DNA of 64,000 nt, from NCBI GenBank assembly GCA_029907515.1, contig JARYLT010000001.1, positions 35,701-99,700 on the forward strand. Reading direction: 5' to 3'. This stretch comes from Spirochaetota bacterium (GTDB lineage Bacteria > Spirochaetota > UBA4802 > UB4802). Position numbers and translations under genes: made by a program. This document shows positions 55,638 to 58,411 of the stretch, piece by piece. Every line of letters begins with the position of its first letter. The first letter of the stretch is position 1. Under the pieces are notes generated by a model. The model saw only the letters and a program-made list of their open reading frames with translations, did no database searches and had not been told where the DNA came from.

Positions 55638-57611
55638 ATGAAAAAACTGTTGATACTACTGTTAGCAGGATTTGTGGCATGTGCTACCGGGGCAAATACC
55701 ACTAAAACAAAATCCTTATCCAACGACCTTAAAAATCTTGTCAATGAATCATGCTTTGAGGTTGTTGTCAATAAACCGGAAAAAGATACCCTGACATACG
55801 AAAAAGAGCTGCCATGGCATCTGATACCGTACAATATACGGGTTGATAAATACTATTCAATTGGAACTGCATTTGCTATCTCCCCTACTGAGCTTTTAAC
55901 TGCTTTTCATGTGCTGGATTTGAAGACTGATTCGCTCATCTATAAAGATTTTTACATCCGTGATTCACAGGGCAATGTGTATGAAGTTGATAAAATTTTA
56001 GCGTTTGATAGTCACCGGGATTTTATACGCTTTACGGTTAAAAATAAGACATTTGCAAAATATTTAAAACTAAAAGAAAATTATACTATTGGCGATAGTG
56101 TCTTTGCAGTTGGCAATGCCTATGGTGAAGGTATTGTCATGCGCCAGGGCGAGCTTATTGGCACATACCCTGAACCGGAAGATGGAAAATTTAATTTATT
56201 GAAAAGCTCATCCGATGTCAATTTTGGAAACAGTGGCGGCCCCCTTGTTGATGATCAGGCTAATTGTATTGGCATTGTCATTCAGCGCAAAGATAATATT
56301 GCCTATTCATTGCCGGTGGCTGAGGTTCTAAAAACCGGCAATCGTGGTATTTTCCACGTGCGTATGAATTTTGGTTTTACGCTGCTTCCGGAAAAGACTA
56401 TGGTGAAGGATTTTGACGATGAACTATCGCTTCCAAAAGGATATAAAGAAATTAAAAAATTGTTCAATGAGCGTTTTAAAAAATTTTATGTTTCAACAAT
56501 GGATGAACTTCTGAAAGGGCAGGGCAGAGGAATGTTCCCTGAGGGTGAGGAATCGCTTATCCCACTTTTTGATTTTACCGATAGTTACTTTTTACAGGTG
56601 AATTATTTAAGCAAGGATAACAACAAATGGACTATCTCCAATATTGAATATAAAGAAACAAAGATACATGGCAATGGCGTTATCCGCATGGCTAATCCTG
56701 ATAAGCGTTTGCTGTTTATTGATATTTCGCGCCCAGATGATGTCAGCTTGCAGGATATGCTGAAAGACCCCAAAGTGGGGATGAAACTTGTCCTTGAAGG
56801 GCAGAGTATAACCCGCGATTTTGGCGATGTCAAAACGCGAATACTATCACTGGGTGATCCACTGGCAGTTGAATACCATACCGATACATACGGCCGTAAA
56901 TGGCGGCTGTGTACATGGGTGCTGGAATATTCTGATGAAGCTGTCATAAGCTGTGCAACACCTACACCTGAAGGCATGTCGGCGGTGGTTTTTGTATGTG
57001 AAACATCTGAAATTGAATTCTGGAAATATGATGCGCTGAAACTCCTGGATTATGTACAGATATCATACTATGGAAGATTGAAAGACTGGAAAGAGTTTTT
57101 AACTGGTAATACATTGCTGCCAAAAGCATTAAGCGGGGTCAAGTTTGATTATTCAGTGGAAAGAGGATTCCAGTTTGGTGCCGGTATGTTTTCTATTTCG
57201 GCAACAAATGATGTTATTGCAATCAATGATGATGTACGTATGGGTATCAATTTTGGATATATAAAGCAGTCCACAGGCACAGAATGGGCAATACGCCGTG
57301 TCATGTTAAGTGAATATCAGAAAGATAATTACTTTGTACTGGTAAACTGGGTTGCACCCGATACCAGGTTGCCAAAGGATTATATTAATTACTGGGAAAG
57401 CATTGTCAATGCTGAGCATCCGTATACCATGAAGCCATTTACAAGCGATAACTCCACCAAAATAGCTGCCGTGGTTAAGAAGATTCAGGAAAAACCTGAA
57501 AAAGTTAAGAAGCTGTACACGCTGTTTTTGGGGAAAGCCGGAAAAGTGGAAGAAGACAGAATGATTCAGGATTTCAAAAAACTCATGAACGGGATTGTTA
57601 TTAATGAATAA
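55638..57611 (+). CDS. Trypsin-like serine protease-domain lipoprotein
   Basis: LLLAGFVACATG lipobox; SIGTAFAISPTELLTAFHVL; HRDFIRF; VNFGNSGGPLVDDQANCIGIVI. Confidence 0.88.
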   Translation: MKKLLILLLAGFVACATGANTTKTKSLSNDLKNLVNESCFEVVVNKPEKDTLTYEKELPWHLIPYNIRVDKYYSIGTAFAISPTELLTAFHVLDLKTDSLIYKDFYIRDSQGNVYEVDKILAFDSHRDFIRFTVKNKTFAKYLKLKENYTIGDSVFAVGNAYGEGIVMRQGELIGTYPEPEDGKFNLLKSSSDVNFGNSGGPLVDDQANCIGIVIQRKDNIAYSLPVAEVLKTGNRGIFHVRMNFGFTLLPEKTMVKDFDDELSLPKGYKEIKKLFNERFKKFYVSTMDELLKGQGRGMFPEGEESLIPLFDFTDSYFLQVNYLSKDNNKWTISNIEYKETKIHGNGVIRMANPDKRLLFIDISRPDDVSLQDMLKDPKVGMKLVLEGQSITRDFGDVKTRILSLGDPLAVEYHTDTYGRKWRLCTWVLEYSDEAVISCATPTPEGMSAVVFVCETSEIEFWKYDALKLLDYVQISYYGRLKDWKEFLTGNTLLPKALSGVKFDYSVERGFQFGAGMFSISATNDVIAINDDVRMGINFGYIKQSTGTEWAIRRVMLSEYQKDNYFVLVNWVAPDTRLPKDYINYWESIVNAEHPYTMKPFTSDNSTKIAAVVKKIQEKPEKVKKLYTLFLGKAGKVEEDRMIQDFKKLMNGIVINE

Positions 57612-57623
57612 TTGAATACAATT

Positions 57624-57650
57624 ATAGCCGCGTATGTGTCACGCGGCTAT
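57624..57650. repeat. Hairpin, left side of IS200-like element
   Basis: ATAGCCGCGT-ATGTGTC-ACGCGGCTAT, 10-bp perfect stem. Confidence 0.8.
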
Positions 57651-57679
57651 ATGTTAGATTTAAGTGTAAATACATAGTT

Positions 57680-57773
57680 TTACTATAATCCCGAAGGGAT
57701 TAAATAGTAATAGCTCCGTATGTAATGCGGAGAAAATAAATCAAAAACTTTTTCAACCCTGGAAGGGTTGAAA
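57680..57773. repeat. Left three-hairpin module
   Basis: TTACTAT-AATCCC-GAA-GGGATT-AA-ATAGTAA (57680-57710); CTCCGTAT-GTA-ATGCGGAG (57714-57732); TTTCAACCCT-GGA-AGGGTTGAAA (57751-57773). Confidence 0.85.
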
Positions 57774-57775
57774 TT

Positions 57776-58222
57776 TTATAATACAAATTTTTCGTCAAAA
57801 ATAATTCCGTGTTCTACTAAAAGTTCAATAAACTCGTCTCTGAAACTTTTTATTTTATGATGTGATTCTTGATTTTTTATATAGGCGATAAGATTATCTT
57901 TCGCTTCAATTGAGTAAGTAAATGCTCCATAACCATTCTGCCATCCTATAAAGTTTGGGAATAGATGATTTTCTTTAATAAATTTTGAACTTGCCAATTT
58001 TATATCTTTTACTAAATCTGCCAATGATTGCGACGGGTGAAGATGAAATAATATATGAACATGATTGTCTATGCCATTTATTTGGTATAGGTGGCAATTT
58101 TTATTTTTTAATATACCAGTAATATATTGATATAATTTAGGCCTATTTTCTTTTAATAATATCATTTCCTGATATTTTGTGCTGAATACTAATTGATATA
58201 ATATTTGTGTGTATGTGCTCAT
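57776..58222 (-). mobile_element. IS200/IS605-like or REP-associated (RAYT-type) Y1 transposase
   Basis: LVFSTKYQE, HUH-type GIDNHVHILFHLHPSQSLADLVKDIKLASSKFI, WQNGYGAFTYS Tyr, IKNQESHHKIKSF. Confidence 0.92.
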
Positions 58223-58318
58223 ATCAAATTTTATTGGTTGTTAATGCTTTGAGATATTATGATATATATTTAATATGTTGAAGATGTATAGTACATTAAA
58301 AATTCTGTCAATTATATT

Positions 58319-58401
58319 AAACCCCTTTGGGGTTTTGTGTATTGATGATTAATAACCACGGATTACATCCATGGCTATTCATATTTAATCGCTTCGCGAT
58401 T
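58319..58401. repeat. Right three-hairpin module (inverted relative to left)
   Basis: AAACCCC-TTT-GGGGTTT (58319-58335); ATAACCACGGATTACATCCATGGCTAT (about 58352-58378; G-U pairs on minus strand); AATCGC-TTC-GCGATT (58387-58401). Confidence 0.85.
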
Positions 58402-58411
58402 GTAAAAAATA

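What the first reader, a model, noticed from the sequence alone, without database searches (positions are those of the whole stretch)
57680..58401. RAYT/IS200-like transposase flanked by mirrored three-hairpin modules
The left module on the plus strand reads AATCCC-GAA-GGGATTAAAT / TAGCTCCGT-ATGTAAT-GCGGAG / AACCCTGGAAGGGTT. The right module on the minus strand reads AATCGC-GAA-GCGATTAAAT / TAGCCATGG-ATGTAAT-CCGTGGTTA / AAACCCCAAAGGGGTTT. Order, loops (GAA, ATGTAAT) and flanking words (ATTAAAT, TAGC) match while stem sequences differ, as if stems co-vary. Two inverted composite modules around the transposase suggest the ends it recognises or a REPIN-like dispersed family. A further hairpin TAGCCGCGT-ATGTGTC-ACGCGGCTA lies outside on the left.
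Basis: partly seen in the sequence, partly recalled or inferred. Interest (0 to 1): 0.68.

Follow-up and report, generated by a model that had tools for sequence, protein, structure and literature searches.

The report
Transposase gene between mirrored hairpin modules
A small single-strand-DNA transposase gene sits between two mirror-image sets of three DNA hairpins; the hairpin sets hold their shape while their stem letters change, related sets are scattered in tens to over a hundred copies in many Bacteroidota genomes that carry a close relative of the enzyme, and this copy seems to have jumped into an unrelated phylum, so it looks like an undescribed cousin of the REP/RAYT repeat systems.

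Summary
Confirmed and extended. The mirrored three-hairpin modules are real (left 57685-57773 +, right 58319-58403 -). A covariance model built only from other genomes finds both at E=2e-13 and 4e-13; all 13 stem pairs show two-sided compensatory change. The gene (57776-58222 -, 148 aa) is an IS200/IS605-type Y1 transposase with the Y---Q--HH signature of 'subclass 1.2' (Quentin 2018), tabulated there as having no REP. Relatives with 60-72% identity lie mainly in Bacteroidota; about 27 loci keep the order module - gene - inverted module. Modules and transposases co-diverge (Mantel r=0.50). Host genomes hold 1-10 diverged transposases and up to at least 136 dispersed modules: solos, inverted pairs, arrays. 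Four same-genus genomes lack the element at this site. Only this one of 296 same-phylum genomes has modules, so it arrived horizontally and has not spread. Best reading: a REPtron/RAYT-like element with a composite, non-GTAG, multi-hairpin REP. It works like RAYT-REP but fails the RAYT protein and GTAG criteria. Movement by this transposase, cleavage sites and exact ends are not shown; in one host, copies ride inside a DDE-like MITE. The outer-left hairpin is probably a native terminator.

The parts
57776..58222 (-). Y1 (HUH, single catalytic tyrosine) transposase gene, 148 aa; HUH = NHVH, WQ, Y-motif YIKNQESHH (subclass 1.2 signature Y---Q--HH)
   Evidence: ORF; Pfam Y1_Tnp 2.6e-23; NCBIfam IS200/IS605 65.6 bits, cut-off 55; PDB relatives ISDra2 and IS608 TnpA; single copy in own genome
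57685..57733 (+). left module core: hairpin H1 AATCCC-GAA-GGGATT, linker AAATAGTAATAG, hairpin H2 CTCCG-TATGTAATG-CGGAG
   Evidence: window-free covariance model R2, 62.0 bits, E=4e-13; DNA folding
57751..57773 (+). left hairpin H3 TTTCAACCCT-GGA-AGGGTTGAAA, between the core and the transposase stop codon
   Evidence: perfect 10-bp stem; same hairpin in Dyadobacter L081, CAACCCTGGAAGGGTTG
58355..58403 (-). right module core: H1 AATCGC-GAA-GCGATT, linker AAATATGAATAG, H2 CCATGG-ATGTAAT-CCGTGG
   Evidence: R2 63.2 bits, E=2e-13; DNA folding
58319..58335 (-). right hairpin H3 AAACCCC-AAA-GGGGTTT, between the core and the transposase start codon
   Evidence: perfect 7-bp stem; partial R1/R2 hit at 58308-58336
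57612..58411 (.). intergenic stretch that holds the inserted element; true ends lie somewhere between 57612-57685 on the left and 58403-58411 on the right
   Evidence: four same-genus genomes (L138-L141) have the same convergent neighbours without it
57623..57651 (.). outer-left hairpin TATAGCCGCGT-ATGTGTC-ACGCGGCTATA: probably the pre-existing terminator-like hairpin between the two convergent genes, not part of the module
   Evidence: 11-bp perfect stem; relatives L140 and L141 have a GC-rich hairpin at the same intergenic place; no hit by R1 or R2

Best explanation
A REPtron-like element: a single-copy Y1 transposase of TnpA subclass 1.2, bordered by two inverted three-hairpin modules that act as its composite REP sites. 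Proposed working: when the region is single-stranded (for instance on the lagging-strand template) each module folds into local hairpins; the transposase dimer reads the hairpin geometry, the loops and the short motif 5' of H2 (consensus TGAATAG/A, in the place of the GTAG 'guide' of classic REPs) rather than the stem letters, and cleaves and joins DNA at or near the modules, so that modules (alone, in inverted pairs or with the gene) are copied or moved. Shown: anatomy, conserved structure with free stem sequence, conserved module-gene-module order, co-divergence, genome-wide dispersal in hosts, presence/absence of the element at this locus within the genus, horizontal arrival. Inferred: that this transposase binds and cleaves the modules, the guide role of the linker, and that it caused the dispersal.
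For: Y1 family and subclass signature (subclass table in PMC6006769). Window-free model recovers both modules; two-sided covariation in 13/13 pairs. Anchor test that did not require pairing: TGAATA anchors in gene flanks have at least 5 of 6 pairs in H1 or H2 at the predicted place in 52 of 99, against 8 of 68 far from the gene. About 27 loci, from Bacteroidota and from records labelled Neomarinimicrobiota, Calditrichota, Armatimonadota and Chlorobiota, have module(+) - gene - module(-). Module and protein distances correlate, Mantel r=0.50, p=0.0002, n=31. 27 of 29 host genomes hold 4 to at least 136 modules (at most 150 candidates scored; the other two hold 1 and 2) but only 1-10 diverged transposases. 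Cytophagales sample: 7 of 10 genomes with a close transposase have 10 or more modules, 1 of 108 others has 3 or more; Fisher p=1.8e-8. Inverted-pair miniature elements in G311/G299, tail-to-tail pairs in G305, solos in Dyadobacter. Element absent at this site in four same-genus genomes; no modules in the 295 other same-phylum genomes searched.
Against: No binding, cleavage or transposition data. In the window genome nothing has been mobilised. Exact ends are unresolved, and copies in some hosts lie inside longer elements with terminal inverted repeats; in G385 one such family has 3-bp target duplications (10 of 12 readable copies, read by eye), which points to a DDE transposase moving the module there. 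Three genomes with a close transposase (G343, G359, G424) show no modules with this model, and one without a detected transposase (G416) has 7. The classic RAYT protein motifs and GTAG head are missing.
Confidence: 0.74

Rival explanations
1. An ordinary IS200/IS605 insertion sequence whose left and right end hairpins happen to be similar; the element moves as a whole by excision and insertion of a single-stranded circle.
For: Protein passes the IS200/IS605 model and fails the RAYT model; nearest solved structures are IS608 and ISDra2 TnpA; the site is empty in four relatives, as for a mobile element.
Against: Classic IS200 ends are not inverted three-hairpin modules; transposase copies within hosts are few and diverged rather than near-identical (Quentin gives 99.4% identity and 4.8 copies for subclass 1.1); modules without a transposase far outnumber it.
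Confidence: 0.14
2. The modules are passengers: hairpin sequences spread mainly by DDE-type MITEs with terminal inverted repeats, and their closeness to the Y1 gene is secondary.
For: G385 113-bp family with ends GGAA...TTCC and 3-bp direct repeats in 10 of 12 copies; G311 and G305 copies inside different terminal inverted repeats.
Against: The carriers differ from genome to genome while the module is the same; solos without a shared carrier in Dyadobacter; conserved placement round the gene, co-divergence and association with the transposase.
Confidence: 0.07
3. The hairpins are transcription terminators or insulators of neighbouring genes and of the transposase gene.
For: They lie between convergent genes; hairpins of this size can terminate or shield mRNA, and REPs are known to do so; the outer-left hairpin fits this well.
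Against: Three hairpins with fixed 29-nt geometry and a conserved linker, on both sides of the gene, absent from the same intergenic site in relatives; no run of T after H1 or H2; no Rfam family matches.
Confidence: 0.05

Closest known systems
RAYT / TnpA-REP with REP sequences (REPtron; Nunvar 2010 PMC2817692, Corneloup 2021 PMC8266576)
   Same: Single-copy Y1 transposase bordered by two inverted palindromic repeats; repeats dispersed in the host genome; co-divergence; stems free to change while loop and 5' motif are kept.
   Different: Protein lacks the Y---NP(L/V)(R/K)xG motif and falls below the RAYT model; repeat is a three-hairpin composite with TGAATAG/A instead of GTAG/GTGG; transposase is on the IS200 side (class 1).
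TnpA-Y1 subclass 1.2 (Quentin 2018 PMC6006769)
   Same: 148 aa, WQ, Y---Q--HH, low copy number with diverged copies, mainly Bacteroidetes.
   Different: That paper lists no REP for this subclass; its automatic search required GTAG/GTGG within 2 nt of the stem. Here modules are found; HUH is NHVH rather than DH[IV]H in the window copy (mixed in relatives).
IS200/IS605 insertion sequences (IS608, ISDra2, IS200)
   Same: Same catalytic family; hairpins near both ends.
   Different: Ends here are mirrored multi-hairpin modules; no multi-copy identical elements; modules outnumber genes.
REPINs / BIMEs (Bertels and Rainey 2011 PMC3116915)
   Same: Inverted pairs of the repeat as a dispersed non-autonomous unit, arrays in alternating orientation.
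   Different: Each unit is made of two or three hairpins per module (about 110-200 bp per pair); in some genomes nested in MITE-like carriers.
TIRYT / TIRtron (Di Nocera 2013 PMC3733652)
   Same: Y1 transposase between longer inverted repeats.
   Different: Those belong mostly to subclass 2.1 proteins with extra C-terminal domains, and their repeats are not multi-hairpin modules.

Membership tests
[quoted passage not shown]
   window and about 27 related loci
RAYT / TnpA-REP (REPtron) | the repeat is over-represented in the host genome | tested here: inconclusive
   not in the window genome (2 modules); met in most Bacteroidota hosts and in a Parabeggiatoa (up to at least 136 modules)
RAYT / TnpA-REP (REPtron) | REP head GT[AG]G 5' of a palindrome | tested here: not met
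   consensus 5' of H2 is TGAATAG/A (with variants such as GAGTAG)
RAYT / TnpA-REP (REPtron) | RAYT protein signature: Y---NP(L/V)(R/K)xG, RAYT family model | tested here: not met
   YIKNQESHH; NCBIfam NF047646 23.6 bits, cut-off 80
RAYT / TnpA-REP (REPtron) | co-evolution of protein and repeat | tested here: met
   Mantel r=0.50, p=0.0002, n=31; close relatives included, so partly shared descent
RAYT / TnpA-REP (REPtron) | single-strand, strand-specific cleavage of the cognate repeat | not testable with these tools
   needs biochemistry
IS200/IS605 transposase | HUH + one Tyr, IS200/IS605 family model above cut-off | tested here: met
   65.6 bits against 55; Pfam Y1_Tnp
IS200/IS605 insertion sequence (whole element) | several near-identical copies per genome | tested here: not met
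   one copy in own genome; hosts have diverged copies
TnpA-Y1 subclass 1.2 | Y---Q--HH and WQ, about 148 aa, low and diverged copy number | tested here: met
   Y---Q--HH in 67 of 72 sequences, WQ in 57; motif comparison only, not placed on the published tree
REPIN | two inverted repeat units as a dispersed non-autonomous element | tested here: met
   inverted module pairs 146-156 nt apart in G311 and G299, tail-to-tail pairs in G305; not present in the window genome

The most novel reading that the evidence does not exclude
A new, widespread class of REP system outside the known RAYT groups: IS200-side transposases of subclass 1.2 with composite three-hairpin, structure-read repeats, evolved in parallel to GTAG REP/RAYT, dominant in Bacteroidota and passed between phyla, where it can newly amplify (Parabeggiatoa) or stay silent (this genome).
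Probability: 0.5. Interest if true: 0.75.

Novelty: new variant of a known kind. Interest (0 to 1): 0.56.

Why it matters
TnpA subclass 1.2 was described as a transposase group with no REP and no clear IS ends. These results give it a partner: a structured composite repeat, present by the tens to more than a hundred in many Bacteroidota genomes. That makes its biochemistry directly testable, offers a natural library of hundreds of compensated stems for asking what a hairpin-reading nuclease reads, and suggests that REP-type domestication arose more than once from IS200-like ancestors. Cross-phylum arrivals with different outcomes give a way to watch how a REP population starts or fails to start.

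Tried and rejected
1) Idea that left and right stems are kept different to stop the two ends pairing with each other: rejected; L and R stems are if anything more alike than shuffled pairs (H2 p=0.0002 in the other direction). 2) Dispersal in the window's own genome by DNA search and by pattern: only chance-level matches apart from the locus itself; covariance search the same. 3) Exact ends from nearly identical elements in different contexts (L094, L096, L114; L079, L082, L115; L073, L106): shared blocks run past the modules and do not give a single clean end. 4) A script test for target duplications in G385 failed because its pattern matched nothing; the 10-of-12 figure was read by eye. 5) The invariant ATA 5' of H2 in alignment A1 is partly my own selection filter, so I do not count it as evidence; the structure-only scan shows the 29-nt geometry independently. 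6) Rfam: no family. 7) Search of papers for the module's consensus words found only papers on unrelated subjects. 9) No structure prediction was run, as the fold family was already plain from sequence.

Full report
Observation. Left module, plus strand: H1 AATCCC-GAA-GGGATT, linker AAATAGTAATAG, H2 CTCCG-TATGTAATG-CGGAG, H3 TTTCAACCCT-GGA-AGGGTTGAAA. Right module, minus strand: H1 AATCGC-GAA-GCGATT, linker AAATATGAATAG, H2 CCATGG-ATGTAAT-CCGTGG, H3 AAACCCC-AAA-GGGGTTT. They form the longest inverted repeat of the region, and as single-stranded DNA each folds into three hairpins, z -6.3 and -4.7, 0 of 200 shuffles as stable.

The gene. 57776-58222 minus encodes 148 aa: Pfam Y1_Tnp 2.6e-23, NCBIfam IS200/IS605 above its cut-off and REP-associated transposase far below its own, solved relatives ISDra2 and IS608 TnpA (element names of the first from my own knowledge). 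It has NHVH, WQ and YIKNQESHH. Quentin et al. 2018 (PMC6006769) define subclass 1.2 by WQ, Y---Q--HH, a median of 148 aa, low and diverged copy number, in Bacteroidetes and Cyanobacteria, with 'no' in the REP column; their automatic REP search required GTAG or GTGG within 0-2 nt of the stem. 67 of 72 sequences here carry Y---Q--HH.

Relatives. 71 loci were found, 30-72% identical, mostly Bacteroidota, with Thiotrichaceae, Neomarinimicrobiota, Calditrichota, Chlorobiota and Armatimonadota records (names are those of the records, many are metagenome bins). Their flanks show the same three-hairpin module with other stem letters. A scan for pairs of perfect hairpins with no sequence requirement gave 600 pairs against 129 in Markov sequence, 384 of them with loop centres 28-30 nt apart. 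The window's two modules have exactly 29.

Covariation. In 45 modules all 13 pairs vary on both sides, 96.9% of cells are paired, covariation score 0.73 against 0.23 shuffled, 0 of 500. The modules were picked as hairpins, so this is partly circular; three checks are not. TGAATA anchors near the gene, picked without regard to pairing, show stems in 52 of 99 against 8 of 68 far from it. A model without window sequences finds both window modules at E=2e-13 and 4e-13. And the distance peak was found without a sequence requirement. G.T pairs are rare except at one position near the H2 loop, which fits DNA rather than RNA pairing.

Arrangement. About 27 loci have module(+) - gene - module(-), in many of them with the modules some 50 nt from either end of the gene. 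In others the gene lies beside complete inverted pairs. Module and protein distances correlate (Mantel r=0.50, p=0.0002, n=31).

Dispersal. With the module model, 29 host genomes hold up to at least 136 modules each (at most 150 candidates scored per genome), while they hold 1-10 transposases that differ from each other. Candidatus Parabeggiatoa (G305) has one transposase and at least 135 modules. In 118 Cytophagales-order genomes (order of Dyadobacter), 7 of 10 with a close transposase have 10 or more modules against 1 of 108 others with 3 or more (Fisher p=1.8e-8; the cut between close and distant was chosen after seeing the data and relatedness is not controlled). The copies are solos (Dyadobacter, L209-L213), inverted pairs of about 200 bp made of six hairpins (G311, G299) and tail-to-tail pairs (G305).

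The window's copy. Its genome has one transposase and two modules, both here. Of 296 genomes of the same phylum none other has a module at E<=1e-6, and the best other transposase there is 37% identical over its length, against 60-72% in Bacteroidota and Thiotrichaceae; on the tree it lies among Bacteroidota rows, with moderate support. Four same-genus genomes have the same convergent neighbours (a trypsin-like gene and a 4-hydroxyphenylacetate hydroxylase-type gene) without the element; two of them, L140 and L141, have only a few tens of bases with a GC-rich hairpin, the other two hold a different inserted repeat. So the element was inserted here, after horizontal arrival. The outer-left hairpin 57623-57651 is best read as the older intergenic hairpin. 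One same-genus genome (G032) holds three decayed modules and another (G007) a transposase remnant, so the lineage may have met this family more than once.

Mechanism. Known TnpA-REP and IS200 transposases bind folded single strands, touch loops and a 5' motif specifically and stems largely non-specifically, and choose cleavage sites through the motif 5' of the hairpin (PMC8266576). The pattern here, with free but compensated stems, kept loops, kept geometry and a kept TGAATAG/A directly 5' of H2, is what such a reader would leave. That the enzyme cleaves at or near the modules and spreads them is inference.

Limits. Ends are not fixed: shared blocks between near-identical elements run past the modules. 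In G385 a 113-bp family with terminal inverted repeats and 3-bp direct repeats (10 of 12, read) carries the module, so at least some spread there is by another transposase; G311 and G305 copies also lie within longer inverted repeats. E-values of the home-made models are rough, and model counts are lower bounds.

Known or new. It works like a REPtron; it is not a RAYT by protein motif, protein model or GTAG head. I found no description of a REP for subclass 1.2 in the open literature searched; most subscription-journal papers and preprints are not covered.

Noticed in passing
L217-L229, L233 (genome G385): 113-bp family with ends GGAA...TTCC and 3-bp direct repeats in 10 of 12 readable copies carries one H1-H2 module: a DDE-like MITE that has picked up the hairpin module.
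   Followed up: partly
L138:1275-1535 and L139 (same-genus genomes): The same intergenic site holds a different insert there, with ends GGGTGTCCCAAAAGACA / TGTTTTGAGACACCC and the words CATTGCGAGGAACGAAGTGACGAAGCAATC: another repeat, so the site accepts insertions repeatedly.
   Followed up: no
L234, L235, L236 (genome G032, same genus): Three decayed modules without a transposase, for example AATCGTAACGCGATTAAATTTTAATAACCACGGGTGTAATATATGG.
   Followed up: partly
L065 (genome G007, same genus): A 32-residue remnant with a stop, 53% identical to the transposase around the catalytic tyrosine.
   Followed up: no
G305 (Candidatus Parabeggiatoa, L077, L194-L202): One transposase and at least 135 modules in a gammaproteobacterium, some inside repeats with ends CTGATGTTACGC: a second cross-phylum invasion, with strong amplification.
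   Followed up: partly
window 55638-57611 (+): Trypsin-like protein of 657 aa whose protease part matches the protease part of the PADLOC family RT-Protease_XI (6e-15); no reverse transcriptase match in this ORF.
   Followed up: no
L079, L102, L115 (Flavobacteriales and other Bacteroidota): Tandem arrays of one hairpin plus the linker AATGTGARTAA next to the transposase, as if hairpin+linker were also a repeating unit by itself.
   Followed up: no
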